54,240 bases of DNA from Polyangium sp. 15x6. GTDB lineage: Bacteria; Myxococcota_A; Polyangia; Polyangiales; Polyangiaceae. This document shows, one piece after another, positions 1,900 through 54,004 of the stretch. The notes under the pieces were generated by a model. The model searched no databases. It saw only the letters and a program-made list of their open reading frames with translations, and was not told the DNA's origin. The translations under genes and the position numbers were made by a program. Positions within the stretch are counted from its first letter, which is position 1. Each line of letters starts with the position of its first letter. The DNA is taken from NCBI RefSeq assembly GCF_029960785.1, contig NZ_JASBQE010000085.1, positions 1 through 54,240 on the forward strand, in the 5' to 3' direction.

Positions 1900-2628
1900 C
1901 TATCGGGTGAATCGGACCCGGATCGGCGGCGTCTTCGCCGCCATCGGCCGGCCCTGTTTGTCGAGCGCCGGCGAATACGTTCTCACCATCGCGCATTGCG
2001 CCGCGACCATGCCGAACCCGTGACCCGGATCGTTCAGGATCTGCACCCACTCCGGGGATCCATCGGCGGCGACCGCGACCGTCAGCGTGACCGTGGCCTC
2101 GTCGATCTCCGCCGCGTCGGCCGCTTTCGGGAATTCACAATCCCACGCGGTCTTCCCGGGCCCCGCCCCGGGTGGCGGCGGCGTGGCGTTGCTCGGAGCC
2201 GGCCCTTGTCGGTTCACGCCGAATGCGACTTTCGCGATTCCGCCTTGTTTCAAGAGATCCATCGTGTGCAAGACGTTTCTCCACGACGTCGACGAATCCG
2301 CCTGGATGATGGCCCTGACGTCCGGGACTCGTTCGTGCGCGCGCGCCGCTGCCGCGCGGATCTCCTCGTCGGTCTGGACCACGTTCCCGTCGATGATCGT
2401 CAAGCCGTTCGCGTTGAGCACGACGCTGAAGAGCATCAGGACGCCCGACCATTCCGCGGCCTGCGGCAGGTCCAACGGGATTGCCGGCACCGTCGGCGCG
2501 GCGTCGGGGGGCGCAGGCGCGGGTGGCGCCGGCGACGTCGGGGCGGCGGGCGGCGCGGCCGCCTGGCACGCGGCGAGCAGCGGGAGCAAGCCGAGGAGGG
2601 CGCGGCGGAAGGGCACGGGTTGTCGCAT
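1900..2628 (-). CDS. Lipoprotein with ExbD/TolR-like and TonB-C-like domains
   Basis: A 242-residue lipoprotein with lipobox LLAAC (Cys21) and a Pro/Ala linker to about residue 55. Residues 65-138 match the periplasmic domain of ExbD/TolR: GLTIIDGNVVQTDEEIRAA, then VRAIIQADSS and a helix ending in GGIAKVAFGV. Residues 165-242 resemble a TonB/AgmX C-terminal domain, with VTLTVAVAADGSPEWVQILND, a Cys-containing helix and a final IRVRFTR strand. Canonical ExbD is held in the inner membrane by an N-terminal helix with a proton-channel Asp; here a lipid anchor replaces it, so proton-driven motor function is unlikely. A scaffold that contacts a Tol/Exb-type machine or peptidoglycan is plausible. 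It stands alone, convergent with the remnant at 1292-1890 and 28 bp downstream of the propeller lipoprotein gene. Domain calls are by eye. Confidence 0.8.
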   Translation of the reverse strand: MRQPVPFRRALLGLLPLLAACQAAAPPAAPTSPAPPAPAPPDAAPTVPAIPLDLPQAAEWSGVLMLFSVVLNANGLTIIDGNVVQTDEEIRAAAARAHERVPDVRAIIQADSSTSWRNVLHTMDLLKQGGIAKVAFGVNRQGPAPSNATPPPPGAGPGKTAWDCEFPKAADAAEIDEATVTLTVAVAADGSPEWVQILNDPGHGFGMVAAQCAMVRTYSPALDKQGRPMAAKTPPIRVRFTR

Positions 2629-2656
2629 CGAACCCGCATCCTGCCACGAGATGGGC

Positions 2657-4216
2657 TCAGGGCGAGAGCTTCATCACGAAGATATCGTCATACCCGGCGC
2701 TCGAGAGCTCCGTGGCGCCGAAGCTGATCCTCCCGTCGAACGATCCCGCGAAGATCGTGTTCCCCTCGCGGTCGATGGCCATGGCTTCGGTCACCTGGGC
2801 AGCCCCGTCCCCGAACTGTTTGGCCCAGAGGAACGCTCCGTTCGGATCGAGCTTGAGCGCGAAGAGGTCGTAGCCTCCCTGGATGTTCACGAGCGGTTCG
2901 CCCACGCCGAACGAAAGAACGCCGAGGAAACTCCCCGTGACGATCACGTTGTCGGCCGCGTCCACGGCGATGGCCTTTCCCTCCTGCGAGGTGACGCTGC
3001 CGGATCGGAGGCTCCACAGGTGCTCGCCATTCGGGGCGAATTTCGCGACGAACAGGTCCGGGTCGCTGTTCGACGAGGTCGAGAGCGGCTCGCCGCCGAA
3101 GTTCACGGTGCCGGCCATGTCCCCCGTGAGGAGGATGTTGTTCTTGGAGTCGACGGCGAGCGCGCGGCTCCGCTGCTCCGTATACGCGGCCCCGAAGACC
3201 TTTTGCCAGAGCGGCGCCCCGTTCGTGTCGAACTTCGCGAGAAGAATGGCGCGGTTGCCGGGGCTCGCCTGGTCGGGGAGCGGCGCGCCAAGGCTCATCG
3301 TGCCCGAAAATGCTGTCTCCAGGACGATGTTGTCCAGGTGATCGACCACGACGCGGCACAGGAGGTGGTTCGGTGGGTCGCCCGGTGACCCATTGCCCAG
3401 GCGCTTGCTCCAGAGCGTATTGCCGTCCTTGTCGAGCTTGGCGAGGAAGATGTCTCGACCGCCCATCGCGTTGAGCGGCTGGCCCGGGATGAACTCCAGC
3501 GATCCGTCGAAATACCCGGCGATGATCGTATTGCCCTTCGAATCGACGGCGAGCGTCGTCGCGAGCTTCGGCATCGTGGAGCCGTCTCCGAATCCCTTCG
3601 CCCACACGGGCACGCCCTCCGGGGTGAGCCTCACGGCGAACACGTCGGACTTGCCGCCGGTGCTCATGAGCTTGACGCCGTTCAGCAGCGTGAGCTCCCC
3701 CTGGAATGAGCCGGCGAGGAAGATGTCTCGATCGGCGGAGACGGCGACGGCGTTGACGTACTGGGCATCCTGGTCGCCGGACCGAATGGCCCATTGAGCT
3801 GCGCCCGTCGCATCGAATTTGGCCAGGTAGATGTCCTCGAGCCCCGAATGCGGCAGCTCCTCGAGTCCATCGAACGAGAATTGGCCCTCGTAGTTCCCCA
3901 CGAGGAAGATGGAGTCGTCCGTGGGATCGAGGGCGACGCCCGAGGCGTGCTGGTCGCCGAACTGGGCGCCGAACGCCTTTCCCCACAGAACATCCCCGGT
4001 CGCCGTGCCTCCGGTTCCGCCGGCGCCTCCCATCCCCCCGGCTCCACCGCTGCCACCCACGCTCGACGAGCTGGTGCTGCTCGTGCTGGCGCTCGGCGGT
4101 TTCGATGTGTCGAGCGAGAGGCATGCAGTGAGGATGGCCGCGGCCGTTCCTGCGAAGAGGATGGCACGAGAGGAGGCAGCCGCCGCGACCGAGCGTTGAT
4201 GATGCGTTCGTTTCAT
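2657..4216 (-). CDS. SBBP-type beta-propeller lipoprotein (paralogue 1)
   Basis: 519 residues. The start ATG at 4216 is supported by GAGG six bases upstream. An N-terminal signal ends in a lipobox (ILTACLS), followed by a Ser-rich and then Gly-rich flexible linker (GGSGGAGGMGGAGG). The rest is built of repeats of about 50-55 residues with the pattern A-D-x-N-x-I-(L/V)-x-G-x-F-x-G-x(2)-x-F-G, alternating with D-(L/I)-(F/Y)-(L/V)-A-K-(F/L)-D-x(3)-G-x(2)-L-W. This is characteristic of SBBP-type surface beta-propellers. It is probably exposed on the outer membrane; the ligand is unknown. It sits 17 bp downstream of a close paralogue (4234-5754), so the pair is a recent tandem duplication within an operon that starts with a Ser/Thr kinase. 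Confidence 0.88.
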   Translation of the reverse strand: MKRTHHQRSVAAAASSRAILFAGTAAAILTACLSLDTSKPPSASTSSTSSSSVGGSGGAGGMGGAGGTGGTATGDVLWGKAFGAQFGDQHASGVALDPTDDSIFLVGNYEGQFSFDGLEELPHSGLEDIYLAKFDATGAAQWAIRSGDQDAQYVNAVAVSADRDIFLAGSFQGELTLLNGVKLMSTGGKSDVFAVRLTPEGVPVWAKGFGDGSTMPKLATTLAVDSKGNTIIAGYFDGSLEFIPGQPLNAMGGRDIFLAKLDKDGNTLWSKRLGNGSPGDPPNHLLCRVVVDHLDNIVLETAFSGTMSLGAPLPDQASPGNRAILLAKFDTNGAPLWQKVFGAAYTEQRSRALAVDSKNNILLTGDMAGTVNFGGEPLSTSSNSDPDLFVAKFAPNGEHLWSLRSGSVTSQEGKAIAVDAADNVIVTGSFLGVLSFGVGEPLVNIQGGYDLFALKLDPNGAFLWAKQFGDGAAQVTEAMAIDREGNTIFAGSFDGRISFGATELSSAGYDDIFVMKLSP

Positions 4217-48999: not shown

Positions 49000-49620
49000 G
49001 GACGCGGTGGGGGGAATGCGCGGACGCGGTTGGCGAGGTCCAGGAGGCCAGGGAGAATCGCGCGGACGCGGTTACGGAGGTCCAGGGGTCCGGGGGAAAT
49101 CGCGCGGACGCGGTCGCCAAGGGTGAGGACGCGGTTGCCGAGGGGGAGGACGCGGTTGCCAAGGGTGAGGACGCGGTTGTCGAGGGGGAGCGCCCGATGG
49201 AGATCGCTCGGACACCGTTGCCAAGGGTGAGGACGCGGTTACCGAGGGTGCGGAGGCGGTTGCCGAGGGTGCGGAGGCGGTTGCCGAGGGTGCGGAGGCG
49301 ATGGGGAACCGATCGGACAGCGTTGCCAAGGGTGAGGAGGCGATGGGAATCCGCGTGGAGGCGGTTGCCGAGGGTGCGGAGGCGATGGGGAAGCGCGTGG
49401 ACGCGGTTGCCGCGGGCGAGGAGGCGATGGGATTTCGCGCGGTCGCGGTTGGCGAGGGGGAGGACGCGATGGGATCCTCGCGGGCGCGCTTGCCGAGGGA
49501 TCGAACGCGGTTACTGAGGGCTTGGGCGCAGGGGGGGAACCGCTCGGGCGTGGTTGCTGAGGGCTCGGGCGCGGTCGTCGAGGGCGCGGGTGCGGTTGCC
49601 TAGAGCGAGGACGCGGTTGT
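49000..49620. repeat. 21-bp/42-bp degenerate minisatellite
   Basis: A GC-rich tandem array built on 21-bp units like GCGGTTGCCGAGGGTGAGGA, with a 42-bp higher-order form that adds GCGATGGGGAA-type halves. Units around 49250-49310 are nearly identical and the edges are diverged. The plus strand translates to EDAVAKG/EAVAEGA heptads in one frame up to about 49190 and in another frame after it, so no single frame is conserved. I read it as non-coding, or as a decayed coiled-coil repeat gene, not as a live CDS. Confidence 0.7.
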
Positions 49621-50052
49621 CTAGAGCGAGGACGCGATGAGGAGGAGGTGCAGCGGTCAAAGACGGCGGCAACATGTGCAGAAGAAGAAGGAGACCCCCC
49701 ATCACTGGAACAAGGGCACGGCAGCCGAGCAATGCCTGTCCAACTCGGTCGGGGCCTTGCAGCTATTCACCCGTCTGGACGTAGTGCCCAGCACGCAGGC
49801 CGTAAGCGCAAGAGCCCGCATGCAGGCCGTACGCAACGACCTGAGAGGACTCACGCATGAGTGTCGTCACCCCAGTTTCGCGCGGAAACGCACCGCCCGA
49901 GCTTGGGGGCTCGTCCGTCGCTTTCAATAGTGGCTCGTCTCGTTGGCGCCTGGGGCCGCCAGGCTTCCTGTTGACCTGCTAGTAGTAGTCGACCTGCCCG
50001 TAGTAGTAGAGGAGGCGATGACACCTGACGTAGATGGGGATAGTCTGAGGAC
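49621..50052. other. Intergenic region before the ATPase-TOPRIM-DUF262 cassette
   Basis: No supported gene. It contains direct copies of CTAGAGCGAGGACGCG (around 49601 and 49620) and two TAG-triplet runs (around 49980 and 50000) separated by GTCGACCTGCCC. It is visibly less biased in base composition than the pil region and must contain the promoter for the three-gene operon starting at 50053. The stretch 48873-48999, upstream of the repeat array, likewise shows nothing. Confidence 0.5.
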
Positions 50053-51273
50053 ATGTCGCCCCCGACCGCCCTTCTCGTCGCACGTTACCGCGCTTTTGCG
50101 GGCGAGGAGACGCTGCCCCTGCGGCCCCTCACACTACTTTACGGACGCAACAACTCGGGCAAGAGCGCTCTCGCTCGCGCGCTAGCCATCATTGGTGCGT
50201 CCGTGACGGAGGCGGCGAAGGGCGCGCTGGTGACACTACCCGAAATTATCCGCGAGGGCGACTTCACGGACCTGGCTTGGCAAGGGGACGCGGGCGACTA
50301 CACCTTCGACATCGGACTGCGCTGGGACGACGGGGAAGTGCGGGAAGTCCGCTACACGCTTGACGGCGGCTCAGGGCGTCCGTCCTACGTCAAGGAGCTG
50401 CTCCTTCGCGGCGCAGACGGCAGGGTGCTATGGGCCGGGCTCACGCCTCCTGCACCTGGCCGCCCGATGCGCCCCCAAACTGGGCACAGCGGCGGCGAAC
50501 AGCGGCTCGCCGGGCTCGTACCCCTGGACTCGGACGTGCCCGTCTTGCAGGGTCTGGCAGCGCGCATGAAGACCCTCCATGGTCGAGTTCGGTGGATCGA
50601 TGGCGTGCGGGCTCGCCCGGCCCGAGTTGTAAAACGCACCGGGACCGCGCCCGCTAACCTGAGACCTGACGGGTCGAACGCGGCCAGCTTTCTCGTCGAG
50701 CAACCGGAGTTGGTCGAGGAGATCGGGCGGTTCTACGCTGACTTGACCCCTGCTCGGGAGCTGGAGGTCAGGGAGGTGCTCGATTTGGGTCACCGGATCA
50801 CCTTGAACCCCAAGAACCGGGCGAGCTTTCGGATCGATCTTGTGGACACAGGCGAGGGTATGGCGCAGGTGCTGCCCGTGCTGGTGGCTGTGGCATTAGC
50901 GGCGCGGGGGGGGCCTTCCGCCCTGCTCGCGGTGGAGGAGCCGGAGAGCCACCTTCACCCCGACGCACAAGCCGTCCTGGCCCGGTATCTCTGCCGGGTC
51001 GCCGGGAGCGAGAAACCCCCCACGCTCGTCATGGAAACTCATAGCCGAGTGTTTCTCCTGGGGATTCAGCTCGCCGTTGCACAGGGACGACTGCCTTGTG
51101 ATCGCGTCGGATTGGCTTGGGTCGATCAGGACGCGGAAGGGCGTAGCACCATCACGCCCGTGGAACTCTCGCCTTCCGGCCACCCGCGCGAGGGCTGGCC
51201 GATCGCAGCTTTCGCTGAAGATCTTCGTCTGGCCAGCGATCTTGCGCGGCTGGATATTGCGCGAGGCCCCTGA
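50053..51273 (+). CDS. OLD/AAA_21-type ATPase (first gene of the cassette)
   Basis: 406 residues. SMC/ABC-like ATPase: N-terminal strand pair (ALLVARYRAFAGEETLPLRP), Walker A LLYGRNNSGKSALARAL (GRNNSGKS at 31-38), a long insertion (about 70-230), the signature-like DTGEGMAQVLPVLVA (265-279), Walker B LLAVEEPESHLHPDAQ (291-306) and the switch METHSRVFLL (327-336). This is the AAA_21/DUF3696-type core found in OLD-family nucleases and other predicted defence ATPases, here without a fused TOPRIM domain. The next gene starts 2 nt after its stop and supplies a TOPRIM-like domain, so the pair probably forms a split OLD-type complex. Codon usage is less GC3-extreme than in the neighbouring housekeeping genes. 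Confidence 0.9.
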   Translation: MSPPTALLVARYRAFAGEETLPLRPLTLLYGRNNSGKSALARALAIIGASVTEAAKGALVTLPEIIREGDFTDLAWQGDAGDYTFDIGLRWDDGEVREVRYTLDGGSGRPSYVKELLLRGADGRVLWAGLTPPAPGRPMRPQTGHSGGEQRLAGLVPLDSDVPVLQGLAARMKTLHGRVRWIDGVRARPARVVKRTGTAPANLRPDGSNAASFLVEQPELVEEIGRFYADLTPARELEVREVLDLGHRITLNPKNRASFRIDLVDTGEGMAQVLPVLVAVALAARGGPSALLAVEEPESHLHPDAQAVLARYLCRVAGSEKPPTLVMETHSRVFLLGIQLAVAQGRLPCDRVGLAWVDQDAEGRSTITPVELSPSGHPREGWPIAAFAEDLRLASDLARLDIARGP

Positions 51274-51275
51274 AC

Positions 51276-52436
51276 ATGCGCGTCACTCTCGACCGCACGC
51301 TGTTCGACGTGCAATCTCCACCAGAGGCCGTAGCGCTCGTGGACTTACTCAGTACAGCCGTGCGCGATCTCCACGGCCACGCAATGCTGACCGATCCGCC
51401 ATACCTGCCCGGTCAGGACAACGGACCGATCGACGTGTGGCTGAATGGCAGGAATTGGCACGAAGCGCAAGCCTTTCGTACATTGCTGACCAATGGTTTG
51501 CTCACCGCAGCGGGCCCCCGCTCCGCAGGCGTATCCGACTCGTCCTGGCCACGACGATGGCACCTTGCGGGTCCGCTCGAGATCCGCGTGGAGCGCCGAG
51601 GGCAGAGCGATTGGAGGAATCGGGTGCTGACCCTTGCCGACGCCGTCGACTTACTGAGCGAGCCTGTCCATCTAGTTATGGAAAATGCGTGGACGGAACT
51701 TGCCTTCGTGCGGCACCTGGCGGGCCCGACGAATGGCACGACGCTGCAAGCATTGCTGGACCGCCCCGGCCGGGTAGCGACTCATGGTGGAGGATCGGGT
51801 GAAGCCAAAAAGTGGGTCGAGGCCCTGACCGAGAACCCACCGACGTCCAGAACCTGGCGCCGAATGTTACGAACATGGGTGCTTTTCGATAATGATGCTG
51901 GCGATCTGGATGTCCGTCAGCTATCCCGACATGCGATTGCGCTCATTCATGCATGCGAGTCAGTCGTGGCCATCCACGGCGCGGGGCTGTCCTGGGTCTG
52001 CTTGCGCAGAAGGGAACTAGAATCCTACATGCCCGACAGTGCGCTGCATGCGGAGGCGCCCATGGACCGAGTCCCGTTCGTCCAAAAGGTCATCTCATGG
52101 CGCTCTGATCCCTCCTGGGCGCCTTTGGCATGGGCGCTGGATCTGAAAAAGGGGCTCCATGGCGACCTTGTCGAGAGCTTATCCCAGGCAGATCGCACCG
52201 AATTGAAGAATAAAAAGATTCCTCTCCAAGCCCACATGCTCAAGCCCCCCTTTGCGGGACTCTCTCCGGGGGATGTAAGCATCTTGGCGCGCGGGCTGGG
52301 AGAAAAGCTAGGAGAGGCCCTTCGTGCAACACCTGACCGGGCCTGGACGTACCAGTTTCCCGCAGAGTACGACCGCGGTCCTGCAGATCAGGCGCCGCGA
52401 TTCTTGTTCGTACAATCCCTCTTCGATCGGATGTAG
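51276..52436 (+). CDS. Stand-alone TOPRIM/DUF4435-like protein (second gene of the cassette)
   Basis: 386 residues. The N-terminal 125 residues are unrecognised. From about 128 the TOPRIM-like motif order is visible: strand-turn with Glu (VHLVMENAWTELAFVRHL; Glu136/Glu141), the Gly turn THGGGSGE (170-176), the D-x-D motif WVLFDNDAGDLD (Asp205, Asp207), and the RRELESYMPDSAL segment (246-257), equivalent to the RREIENYL element of OLD/DUF4435 TOPRIM proteins. The acidic residues would bind Mg and allow DNA nicking or cleavage. The C-terminal about 130 residues are helical. Flanked by an ATPase gene 2 nt upstream and a DUF262 gene 2 nt downstream. The TOPRIM assignment rests on motif order and spacing, not on a search. 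Confidence 0.72.
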   Translation: MRVTLDRTLFDVQSPPEAVALVDLLSTAVRDLHGHAMLTDPPYLPGQDNGPIDVWLNGRNWHEAQAFRTLLTNGLLTAAGPRSAGVSDSSWPRRWHLAGPLEIRVERRGQSDWRNRVLTLADAVDLLSEPVHLVMENAWTELAFVRHLAGPTNGTTLQALLDRPGRVATHGGGSGEAKKWVEALTENPPTSRTWRRMLRTWVLFDNDAGDLDVRQLSRHAIALIHACESVVAIHGAGLSWVCLRRRELESYMPDSALHAEAPMDRVPFVQKVISWRSDPSWAPLAWALDLKKGLHGDLVESLSQADRTELKNKKIPLQAHMLKPPFAGLSPGDVSILARGLGEKLGEALRATPDRAWTYQFPAEYDRGPADQAPRFLFVQSLFDRM

Positions 52437-52438
52437 CG

Positions 52439-54004
52439 ATGGAACGCAAGATGTTTGACACGCCCGTGCTGCCTCGTCTGGAGACGATCCTAACAGAGGT
52501 GAAGTCCGGCGACCTCGTGATCCCCGAATTCCAGCGCCCTTTCGTTTGGGATGACGATCGGCGGCTAAATTTGCTGGATAGCATCGTCGAGGGCATGCCG
52601 ATCGGCAGTCTGCTAGTGTGGCGCACGAACAGGCGCGATTTGCGTACTTACGAGCGGGTAGGCGGAGTCAGGCTTGAAGGACCGCGGAAGGGCGACGAGA
52701 AGCTCAATTATCTCATTGACGGCCATCAACGCATCTCCACCCTCTTCGGTGCGCTGTACTCAGGAGATCGCGAGCCGTCCGAGGACGACGCGCGCTGGCC
52801 TTTATATTATGACTTGGAAGCGGGGCAACGCCCGGCCTTCCGGGTGCCCCCACGTCGCGGCTCCGTGTCCGCTCATTGGCTGCCGCTCAGCACTCTGCTC
52901 GACGGTGACAAGCTCTTCGATTTTACCCAGCGCCTGCGCGAGAAAGGCAGGCGTGACCTCGCCAAGGACGCAGAACGCCTGGCCAATATTTTTCGCGATT
53001 ATATCATCCCAATCGTTCCTTTGGTGACCGAGGAGCTGAACGTGGTCACGGATGCGTTTGTGCGCATCAACAGCCAGGGCAAAGGCATGAGCGAGGCCCA
53101 TATGCTACGGGCCCTTACCCACCTCGGAGCTATCGACACTGACAGCCACTTCAAGGAGGTTCGTGCTCGTCTCGATCCCTTGGGTTGGGGTACGCTGGAC
53201 GATCAGGTGCTGGTCAACGTCCTCAAGGCTCAGCTCGACCTGGATGTGTACGCATCCGATGTGCGCGGCGTGCATGAGAAGCTGAAGCAGGACCCGGCGC
53301 CCCTTAAAGGACTCGCAGGTGTCCTGGAAGAGGCTGTGGACTTCCTGGCCAAGGTCGGAGTGCGGGGACCAGGAGCGCTACCTTATACCTACCAACTCGT
53401 CACGTTGGCGACGCTGGCAGCTTGGCACCCAGGGATTCTGGGGCGTCCCGAGTTGCAGAGTCGCTTGCGTGAATGGTTTTGGATCACGACCTACACGGAG
53501 CTGTTCTCGGGGATCACCGGCAGCCGGATCCGGGATAGCATCCACCAGCTCAGCGATGAACTAACGCATGGCGGCCCTCCCATGAGGTTGGATCTCGCGG
53601 CGGTCAAGCCACTGACGCAGATTCGGGGCTCTACGGGTCGCACGCGGGCATTTCTGCTCTTCTTGGCGCAGCTCCCTAGCGATGAGGACGCTCGGCAGCG
53701 CCGGCAAGAGCGGCTCGGGATGGACGACACTCGAGCAGCTACCATCCTCATCGCGGGCGCAGCAGGTGGAGACCCCGGCAACCGCGTCATCGCAGATTTC
53801 ACGGAACAGCGGGTTCTTCGTGGAGCCATCAAGTTCGGCGTAATGGATCCGAAGATTGCCGATGAATTCGGCATGCCGCACGAGGCTCTTAATGCCCTGC
53901 CGGATCAGCGTGCTTTTCTGGACGCGCGAACAAGATGGCTCGTAGAGCAGGAGAAGGAATTTATCAAAACGTTTAATCTCGAGGTGAGCGATAGCGAGTC
54001 GTGA
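52439..54004 (+). CDS. DUF262 (GmrSD-N/ParB-like) protein (third gene of the cassette)
   Basis: 521 residues. The DUF262 core occupies residues about 10-225: VIPEFQRPFVWDDDRRLNLL (27-46; IPxFQRPFVW), DSIVEGMPIGSLLVWR, the DG-x-QR element as LIDGHQRISTLFGAL (DGHQR at 94-98) and FVRINSQGKGMSEAHM (207-222). These residues build the nucleotide-dependent ParB/Srx-like active site. The C-terminal about 300 residues are helical and lack a visible DUF1524 HNH nuclease, unlike GmrSD type IV restriction enzymes. DUF262 proteins are frequent in defence islands. The start 2 nt after the TOPRIM gene implies co-translation. Confidence 0.88.
   Translation: MERKMFDTPVLPRLETILTEVKSGDLVIPEFQRPFVWDDDRRLNLLDSIVEGMPIGSLLVWRTNRRDLRTYERVGGVRLEGPRKGDEKLNYLIDGHQRISTLFGALYSGDREPSEDDARWPLYYDLEAGQRPAFRVPPRRGSVSAHWLPLSTLLDGDKLFDFTQRLREKGRRDLAKDAERLANIFRDYIIPIVPLVTEELNVVTDAFVRINSQGKGMSEAHMLRALTHLGAIDTDSHFKEVRARLDPLGWGTLDDQVLVNVLKAQLDLDVYASDVRGVHEKLKQDPAPLKGLAGVLEEAVDFLAKVGVRGPGALPYTYQLVTLATLAAWHPGILGRPELQSRLREWFWITTYTELFSGITGSRIRDSIHQLSDELTHGGPPMRLDLAAVKPLTQIRGSTGRTRAFLLFLAQLPSDEDARQRRQERLGMDDTRAATILIAGAAGGDPGNRVIADFTEQRVLRGAIKFGVMDPKIADEFGMPHEALNALPDQRAFLDARTRWLVEQEKEFIKTFNLEVSDSES

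What the first reader, a model, noticed from the sequence alone, without database searches (positions are those of the whole stretch)
50053..54004. Three-gene ATPase / TOPRIM-like / DUF262 cassette, candidate undescribed defence system
Three genes spaced by 2 nt each encode an OLD/AAA_21-type ATPase with Walker A and B, a separate TOPRIM-like protein with E/GG/DxD/RRELES motifs, and a DUF262 protein with IPxFQRPF and DGHQR. ATPase plus TOPRIM recalls OLD/Gabija nucleases but split; DUF262 recalls GmrSD and ParB-like enzymes but without an HNH domain. I know of no described system with exactly these three components. The cassette follows a repeat-rich, gene-poor stretch and its codons look less GC3-biased, consistent with acquisition.
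Basis: partly seen in the sequence, partly recalled or inferred. Interest (0 to 1): 0.75.

Follow-up and report, generated by a model that had tools for sequence, protein, structure and literature searches.

The report
Three-gene ATPase-nuclease phage defence candidate
A myxobacterium carries a compact three-gene unit, a molecular switch, a DNA- or RNA-cutting enzyme and a restriction-enzyme relative that has lost its own cutting site, which recurs across many bacteria and is probably an anti-virus defence; a database already lists it as an untested candidate.

Summary
In detail: three intact + strand genes with 2-nt gaps. Gene 1 is an OLD-type ABC ATPase. Gene 2 is TOPRIM-like: its AlphaFold2 model (pLDDT 94.5) matches OLD nuclease C-termini and PARIS AriB, and E136, G172, G173, D205 and D207 are invariant in 69 of 69. 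Gene 3 has the whole GmrSD/BrxU fold, but its HNH motif is lost here and in 69 of 69 trio relatives. The trio recurs in the same order in 69 of 80 loci, in eight phyla, and on two plasmids. It is not undescribed: the proteins match PADLOC's candidate PDC-M55 A, B and C. Menshen shares the ATPase and DUF262 families, but its NsnC shows no relation to gene 2. Most likely mechanism (inferred): the nuclease-dead GmrSD-type protein senses infection and the ATPase activates the TOPRIM nuclease. Nothing was tested in a cell. New member of a known, uncharacterised kind; a 2025 paper on Menshen variants, not readable here, may cover it.

The parts
50053..51273 (+). Gene A: 406-aa OLD-type ABC ATPase (PDC-M55A type)
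   Evidence: Pfam AAA_21 3e-19; PADLOC PDC-M55A 5.9e-50, NsnB 3.4e-32; hhalign against ATPases next to NsnC-type genes prob 100, E 1.6e-40
50143..50166 (+). Walker A GRNNSGKS (A residues 31-38)
   Evidence: G31, N33, G36, K37 invariant in 56 of 56
50851..50859 (+). ABC-signature-like GEG (A residues 267-269); name of the motif recalled
   Evidence: G267 and G269 invariant in 56 of 56
50920..50946 (+). Walker B region ending in EEPE (A residues 290-298)
   Evidence: E295, P297 invariant in 56 of 56; E298 in 54
51034..51045 (+). H-loop ETHS (A residues 328-331); name of the motif recalled
   Evidence: invariant in 56 of 56
51276..52436 (+). Gene B: 386-aa TOPRIM nuclease-like protein (PDC-M55B type), proposed effector
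   Evidence: PADLOC PDC-M55B 2.1e-11; 69 of 69 aligned proteins match; AF2 pLDDT 94.5; Foldseek rank 1 AriB, E 0.02; VIA Z 8.9 against an OLD C-terminus
51681..51683 (+). TOPRIM E136
   Evidence: 69 of 69
51789..51794 (+). TOPRIM GG172-173
   Evidence: 69 of 69 each
51888..51896 (+). TOPRIM DxD 205-207
   Evidence: 69 of 69 each D
52011..52028 (+). RELESY (B residues 246-251)
   Evidence: R246, E249, Y251 each 68 of 69
52146..52148 (+). K291, possible counterpart of the catalytic Lys/Arg of OLD nucleases (inferred, no residue-level superposition)
   Evidence: 63 of 69; role of Bp OLD K562 and Ts OLD R487 in PMC7049728 (passages)
52439..54004 (+). Gene C: 521-aa DUF262 protein with full GmrSD/BrxU-like fold and degenerate DUF1524 (PDC-M55C type), proposed sensor
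   Evidence: GmrSD_N 5.2e-24; PDC-M55C 3.7e-77; AF2 pLDDT 93.3; BrxU Foldseek 4.6e-11, VIA Z 15.6 over 455 residues, rmsd 16.7
52529..52537 (+). FQR (C residues 31-33), DUF262
   Evidence: F31, R33 64 of 64; Q32 63
52718..52732 (+). DGHQR (C residues 94-98), DUF262 NTP-binding motif
   Evidence: D94, G95, Q97, R98 64 of 64; (I/V)DGQQR as NTP pocket in PMC10952713 (passages)
53741..53755 (+). Place of the lost HNH motif: TILIA where HNH-bearing relatives have HH[IVF][FY]P
   Evidence: alignment; H in both columns in 0 of 70 trio rows

Best explanation
The cassette is a three-component anti-phage (or anti-mobile-element) defence operon of the PDC-M55 type. Gene C is a GmrSD-type protein that keeps its DUF262 NTP-binding site but has lost its HNH cutting site, so it most likely senses rather than cuts: it binds a feature of invading DNA (for example modified bases) or a phage protein, using NTP binding as its switch. 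Gene A, an OLD-type ABC ATPase, relays this signal and holds or releases gene B. Gene B is a TOPRIM two-metal nuclease and is the effector, cutting nucleic acid (phage or cell DNA as OLD and GajA do, or tRNA as AriB does). Shown: the three genes, their predicted folds, conserved active-site residues, the loss of the HNH motif, and co-inheritance as one unit. Inferred: defence function, order of signalling, nuclease activity and its substrate.
For: PADLOC match of all three proteins to PDC-M55 A, B, C. Same order and strand in 69 of the 80 best loci of a C-based scan and in 19 of 40 regions taken from relatives, 37 of them chosen by a C match and 3 by a B match. Searches with B also lead to C: in 4 of the 5 genomes matched (own genome included; the fifth is a weak match with two stops) the trio is there, and both plasmids found carry it. 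No fourth gene is shared by more than 4 of the 69 loci. Pairwise distances of A-B, B-C and A-C correlate at r 0.85, 0.82 and 0.91 in 55 loci, no permutation of 999 as high. TOPRIM fold and invariant acidic residues. HNH loss: 0 of 69 trio relatives carry xH[IVL]xP, while stand-alone relatives do; the C-terminal domain is homologous to the HNH-bearing ones (35 of 70 at E<1e-3 from residue 380, 0 of 273 shuffles). The NTP site is kept in 64 of 64. Neighbours hit 86 PADLOC models against 3 for 93 control genes.
Against: No function was tested. The island signal is weak in kind: no PADLOC model is matched by more than 3 of the 93 neighbours, 18 of the 25 models shown are PD-T4-6 models matched by the same number of proteins (2), mad3 also matches one control gene, and the controls come from 12 arbitrary stretches. 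The TOPRIM match is modest by numbers: Foldseek best E 0.02, none of 506 matches at 0.001; 2 of 999 chains reach Z 8, and unrelated lumazine synthases reach 6.4. Neither Pfam nor the PDB sequence search names gene B. C-type proteins also occur without A and B: 20 of 40 fetched regions and 9 of 80 loci, most of those in the 40 without the HNH motif too, so HNH loss is not confined to trios. L153, at a contig edge, groups on the trio side of the tree but keeps HH at the HNH columns. Which of A or C is the sensor is not determined: in PARIS it is the ATPase (PMC12409363, passages).
Confidence: 0.6

Rival explanations
1. Decoy (guard) model: gene C is a nuclease-dead copy of a type IV restriction enzyme kept as bait. 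Phage anti-restriction proteins that target GmrSD enzymes bind it, and this trips the ATPase-TOPRIM pair, as Ocr trips PARIS.
For: The HNH motif is lost while the fold is kept. PARIS, an OLD-ABC plus TOPRIM pair, senses the anti-restriction protein Ocr (PMC12409363; PMC12839542; passages). T4 carries three distinct GmrSD inhibitors (PMC12373910, passages).
Against: The NTP-binding motif is invariant, more than a pure bait would need. I know of no phage inhibitor of C (no search was made for one).
Confidence: 0.2
2. PARIS-like model: the ATPase itself is the sensor and jailer of the TOPRIM nuclease, and gene C is an accessory, for example a nucleotide-dependent brake.
For: Split ATPase and TOPRIM as in AriA/AriB; AriB is the top Foldseek hit of B.
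Against: C co-varies most tightly with A (r 0.91), and B-based searches also led to C. A systematic search for A-B pairs without C was not made.
Confidence: 0.2
3. Not defence: a toxin-antitoxin or housekeeping DNA-repair module.
For: OLD-family proteins can have other roles (Cran1 in archaea: title and start of abstract seen in a search listing).
Against: Patchy distribution mixing phyla, plasmid carriage, defence-type neighbours, match to a defence candidate catalogue.
Confidence: 0.1

Closest known systems
PDC-M55 (PADLOC-DB phage defence candidate, three models A, B, C)
   Same: All three proteins match the three models, in the order A-B-C; 69 of 69 B and 64 of 64 C proteins aligned here match.
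   Different: No difference found: this is the same candidate family. The window B is a divergent member (2.1e-11, residues 119-263). The name is in no paper of the library.
Menshen (NsnA, NsnB, NsnC; that these names belong to Menshen is recalled)
   Same: DUF262 protein and an ATPase of the same full-length family (hhalign prob 100, E 1.6e-40).
   Different: The third protein NsnC shows no relation to the TOPRIM protein (hhalign prob 0.1). NsnA is short (model of 385 positions); gene order is NsnA-ATPase-NsnC.
PARIS (AriA, AriB)
   Same: OLD-type ATPase and separate TOPRIM protein; AriB is the Foldseek top hit of B.
   Different: A third gene (C); no AriB model among the PADLOC matches of 69 B proteins; VIA Z only 5.3, rmsd 4.6, 161 aligned.
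GmrSD, BrxU, SspE type IV-like enzymes
   Same: C aligns to BrxU over residues 7-510 (Z 15.6, rmsd 16.7, 455 aligned) and to SspE.
   Different: HNH catalytic motif lost.
OLD nucleases and Gabija GajA
   Same: ABC ATPase plus TOPRIM; best fold match of B is an OLD C-terminus (Z 8.9, rmsd 3.8, 177 aligned).
   Different: The domains are on separate genes, and no GajB-like helicase is a regular part of the unit (a helicase-like family lies near 3 of 69 loci).
HEC-01 (PADLOC candidate with models HEC-01A and HEC-01B)
   Same: HEC-01A matches the ATPase (3.1e-13); HEC-01B matches 1 of 69 B proteins (2.8e-4).
   Different: Far weaker than PDC-M55; its full composition was not looked up.

Membership tests
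PDC-M55 (PADLOC) | PDC-M55A-type ATPase | tested here: met
   E 5.9e-50, residues 6-404
PDC-M55 (PADLOC) | PDC-M55B-type protein | tested here: met
   E 2.1e-11, residues 119-263; 69 of 69 aligned members match
PDC-M55 (PADLOC) | PDC-M55C-type DUF262 protein | tested here: met
   E 3.7e-77, residues 8-519
PDC-M55 (PADLOC) | genes adjacent | tested here: met
Menshen | NsnB ATPase | tested here: met
   PADLOC NsnB 3.4e-32, though PDC-M55A scores higher; hhalign prob 100 against ATPases of two Menshen loci and one Menshen-like locus
Menshen | NsnA DUF262 protein | tested here: inconclusive
   NsnA 9.8e-8, shared domain only; PDC-M55C scores far higher
Menshen | NsnC | tested here: not met
   no NsnC match; hhalign against three NsnC-type proteins (one of them a weak model match) prob 0.1. 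A Menshen subtype with a TOPRIM third gene is not excluded, as the 2025 paper could not be read
PARIS | AriA-type ATPase | tested here: inconclusive
   AriA models match at 1.8e-19 and 6e-19 but have 304 and 373 positions, close to the general Pfam models AAA_21 (304) and AAA_15 (374), so they may not be specific (inference)
PARIS | AriB-type TOPRIM | tested here: inconclusive
   fold match Z 5.3 and Foldseek rank 1; no AriB model matched among 69 members
PARIS | two-gene system activated by an Ocr-like trigger | not testable with these tools
   the trigger needs an experiment; here a third gene belongs to the unit
TOPRIM (OLD-like) nuclease | TOPRIM fold | tested here: met
   VIA ranks 1-5 are OLD proteins, Z 8.9-6.8, rmsd 3.6-4.6, 132-177 aligned; Foldseek E-values are weak (best 0.02)
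TOPRIM (OLD-like) nuclease | invariant E, GG and DxD | tested here: met
   69 of 69
TOPRIM (OLD-like) nuclease | nuclease activity | not testable with these tools
   needs purified protein
GmrSD type IV restriction enzyme | DUF262 domain with DGxQR | tested here: met
GmrSD type IV restriction enzyme | active DUF1524/HNH motif | tested here: not met
   motif in 0 of 69 trio relatives; H in both HNH columns in 0 of 70 rows, window included
Gabija | fused ATPase-TOPRIM plus UvrD-like helicase | tested here: not met
   ATPase and TOPRIM are separate genes; no helicase next to the window trio up to the contig end; a helicase-like family lies near only 3 of 69 loci

The most novel reading that the evidence does not exclude
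The trio is a guard system built round a dead restriction enzyme: a GmrSD-type protein that lost its nuclease serves as bait for phage anti-restriction proteins (or as a pure modified-DNA reader), and its lost cutting function has been handed to a TOPRIM nuclease that an OLD-type ATPase keeps in check.
Probability: 0.2. Interest if true: 0.75.

Novelty: new member of a known kind. Interest (0 to 1): 0.45.

Why it matters
PDC-M55 is a listed candidate for which I found no published description. The evidence here gives it a concrete, testable design: a restriction enzyme without a cutting site, coupled to a separate ATPase-nuclease pair. It links three known kinds (type IV restriction, Menshen, PARIS/OLD). 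Two plasmid-borne copies, one from an enterobacterial conjugative plasmid, make it easy to test in laboratory E. coli. If C proves to be a bait for anti-restriction proteins, it would show a new way in which bacteria turn counter-defence into an alarm.

Tried and rejected
Menshen with TOPRIM as NsnC: considered after the review (PMC10952713, passages) tied Menshen to a predicted OLD nuclease. NsnC proteins fetched from Menshen loci show no E/GG/DxD pattern to the eye and do not align with gene B, so membership was not claimed.

Pfam as a test for the lost HNH domain: rejected as uninformative, because GmrSD_C is also not called in the HNH-bearing relatives (only L152, E 0.079). The loss rests on the alignment and on BrxU/SspE fold matches instead. 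A looser pattern (HH, or xH[IVLF]xP, after residue 380) hits 3 of 70 trio C proteins (L086, L088, L101); I did not place these three hits one by one, but none has H in both HNH columns.

Searches of gene B: no Pfam, NCBIfam or PDB sequence match, none on plasmids with the window protein; the profile against the PDB gave only a ribosomal protein at E 1; Pfam on 69 members gave stray matches only (best VWA_CoxE 2.6e-4 in 2 members, 25 of 26 families shown). The scan of viral contigs with gene B found none; phage records none with two other B proteins; E. coli genomes none with the Leclercia trio DNA.

Parts barely tested by the fold lists: residues 1-82 of B and 379-521 of C (apart from the BrxU, SspE and DndI rows). 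No claim is made for B 1-82.

Defence-island test: 106 neighbours were chosen (six near-duplicate loci left out beforehand), 103 aligned, too long to scan; 93 of these were used. Dropped: L101:9502, L104:9678, L151:5844, then L080:9693, L133:2190, L143:9669, both L146, both L147, L151:652, both L154. In the ATPase alignment 56 rows stand for 69 trio loci and the window: 8 loci were left out because my script did not settle a start or Walker A position (L089, L095, L099, L101, L104, L108, L127, L143; at least three of these show a Walker A with other letters), 6 as near-duplicates, and 7 were put back by hand with the start of the ORF list. In the C alignment 6 near-duplicates were left out; in the B alignment L096 (short).

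Gap sizes lean towards small values, because the script chose the start codon nearest to the end of the preceding gene.
Full report
What is there. The window (one whole contig, C259, of a 13.4-Mb genome) ends with three + strand genes spaced by 2 nt: 50053-51273 (406 aa), 51276-52436 (386 aa) and 52439-54004 (521 aa). The host is probably a Polyangium (inference): G002 is 'same genus', and its contig C153 (55500 bases) has the length and the trio scores of L093, a record of Polyangium sp. 6x1. The own genome gave one GmrSD_N match and one gene-B match.

Gene A is an OLD-type ABC ATPase: AAA_21 3e-19, with Walker A, signature, Walker B and H-loop residues invariant in 56 aligned sequences. Nearly its whole length aligns with the ATPases of two Menshen loci and one Menshen-like locus (hhalign prob 100, E 1.6e-40).

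Gene B has no Pfam, NCBIfam or PDB sequence match. With 69 sequences the AlphaFold2 model is confident (mean pLDDT 94.5, pTM 0.91). Foldseek against the PDB puts AriB of PARIS first, weakly (E 0.02, probability 0.54). The realignment of Foldseek's candidates puts OLD nucleases at ranks 1-5 (6nk8 Z 8.9, rmsd 3.8, 177 aligned; 6p74 Z 6.8, rmsd 3.6, 132 aligned), AriB at Z 5.3 (rmsd 4.6, 161 aligned) and retron Eco2 at 5.2 (rmsd 4.3, 160 aligned). Unrelated lumazine synthases reach 6.4, so Z alone is not decisive, but E136, G172, G173, D205 and D207 are invariant in 69 of 69, and R246, E249 and Y251 in 68 of 69, which is the TOPRIM pattern (recalled). K291 (63 of 69) may match the catalytic Lys/Arg of OLD nucleases described in PMC7049728 (passages); this was not superposed.

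Gene C carries DUF262 (GmrSD_N 5.2e-24) with the NTP-site residues D94, G95, Q97 and R98 invariant in 64 of 64. Its model (pLDDT 93.3) matches BrxU over residues 7-510 (Foldseek 4.6e-11; Z 15.6, 455 aligned, rmsd 16.7, which suggests domain shifts) and the SspE C-terminal part over 215-521 (Z 8.9, rmsd 6.1, 286 aligned). So the DUF1524-type domain is still there. Its catalytic motif is not: xH[IVL]xP occurs in 0 of 69 trio relatives and in 7 of 29 DUF262 relatives for which no partners were found. Of these seven, five have HH[IV][FY]P, L153 has HHVLP and L067 an unrelated-looking EHIHP; three more of the 29 have HHFFP. The other stand-alone relatives lack the motif too, so its loss is not confined to trios. 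In the aligned columns the first H is found in 5 and the second in 16 of 70 trio rows, never both, and the loop after it is largely deleted in the rows shown. A profile of eight HNH-bearing C-termini still finds 35 of 70 trio C-termini from residue 380 (E<1e-3), 70 of 70 from residue 300, and none of 273 shuffled sequences.

Is the trio a unit? In 69 of 80 the genes lie A-B-C on one strand; with the starts chosen by my script, 67 of 69 A-B gaps lie between -20 and 8 and 68 of 69 B-C gaps between -10 and 24. Two more loci are cut at a contig end with B and C; nine have C only. Of these nine, seven form a supported branch of their own (100/100), of which five are HNH-bearing; L112 lies inside the trio group and has apparently lost its partners; L153, at a contig edge, sits on the trio side but keeps the HH pair. 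Of 40 regions fetched from relatives of the window genome (37 chosen by a C match, 3 by a B match), 19 have A, B and C, 20 have C only and one has none (B is split in L037 and L055). In a draw of 377 genomes of the phylum, 45 have a PDC-M55C match at 1e-20, which includes C-only proteins. Searches started from B also lead to C: in 4 of 5 genomes (own genome included) and on both plasmids. Pairwise distances of A, B and C correlate at 0.82-0.91 in 55 loci. No fourth gene recurs: among 427 neighbour ORFs the largest family spans 4 loci, all Streptomyces.

Mobility and surroundings. The window C is nearest to Corallococcus praedator (72%), of another family, and not to Polyangium sp. 6x1 (30%). 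Phylum labels need 21 changes on the tree where 8 would be the least (the tool warns that this is no proof of transfer). Trio rows of that tree come from eight phyla. Complete trios sit on a mobilizable Paracoccus plasmid and a conjugative Leclercia plasmid, annotated AAA ATPase - hypothetical - DUF262, and all six proteins match my profiles. Ninety-three nearest neighbours match 86 PADLOC models at 1e-20 (25 shown: 18 PD-T4-6 models, MADS mad3 and mad6, MkoA, a kinase model, a type III methyltransferase and IetS) against 3 models for 93 genes of 12 arbitrary stretches of genomes from the same set. No model is matched by more than 3 neighbours, and how many of the 93 match at all is not told.

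How it probably works. The ATPase-plus-TOPRIM pair is the core of OLD, Gabija and PARIS (PMC12409363 and PMC10568477, passages). In PARIS the ATPase holds AriB inactive until a phage protein binds, and its split genes have been proposed as a class of OLD proteins of their own. In SspE, NTPase activity of DUF262 activates the HNH domain (PMC10952713, passages). In the trio the HNH site is gone and a separate nuclease has come in, so the simplest reading is that C senses, A relays and B cuts. The decoy reading is kept as the boldest one that the data allow.

What is known. PADLOC lists the trio as PDC-M55. PDCs are putative candidates from a guilt-by-embedding study, and validation is pending for most of those in the core set discussed in PMC12988326 (passages); the study itself, Payne et al. 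2024, was seen only as a reference. 'PDC-M55' is in none of the library's papers. Searches for DUF262/GmrSD with TOPRIM and ATPase listed no paper that describes this trio, judged from listings and the passages read. Li et al. 2025 on Menshen domain polymorphism was seen only as a reference and is not held; it may treat this trio as a Menshen variant. That is the main uncertainty about novelty.

Noticed in passing
window 49010-49636: Tandem arrays of 21-, 42-, 84- and 104-base units, directly upstream of the trio, in a stretch where I see no convincing gene.
   Followed up: partly
L112:5585-7192: A trio-type C gene (Candidatus Marithrix) without A and B in the stretch held, nested among trio C proteins on the tree: probably a remnant of a decayed locus.
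   Followed up: partly
L153:228-1889: A C protein at a contig edge (Chitinophagaceae) that lies on the trio side of the tree but keeps HHVLP at the HNH columns: possibly an early branch that still has its nuclease.
   Followed up: no
L037:1656-2484 and L055:7331-7850: Gene B is split by a frameshift or stop in two copies, either decay or assembly error.
   Followed up: no
NZ_MH909329.1 101537-103252 (hit H4): In a second Leclercia plasmid the gene-B match is in two pieces with an IS1-like transposase annotated under the match, so gene B looks interrupted.
   Followed up: no
L125:7980-9569 and L150:7980-9569: DUF262 proteins on the branch of the HNH-bearing group that have themselves lost the HNH motif, each preceded by a closely spaced gene of 313-329 codons; possibly a different two-gene system.
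   Followed up: no
L047-L076 (20 C-only regions): Many DUF262 proteins of the same phylum match PDC-M55C but have no ATPase/TOPRIM neighbours found by my profiles, and most lack the HNH motif; their partners were not identified.
   Followed up: no
L080:9693-14234, L102:703-2802 and a gene in L103: A helicase-like family (my reading of the sequence, no profile search) lies near 3 of the 69 trios, 34 bases downstream in L080.
   Followed up: no
L157:1426-2427 and 2433-3449: An NsnC-like gene beside an OLD-type ATPase in the genome G456 that also holds the trio L081; the NsnC match is weak (8.8e-6).
   Followed up: no
Thermotoga maritima control genome: The PDC-M55C model also rings in Thermotoga maritima, one of the 14 named control genomes.
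   Followed up: no
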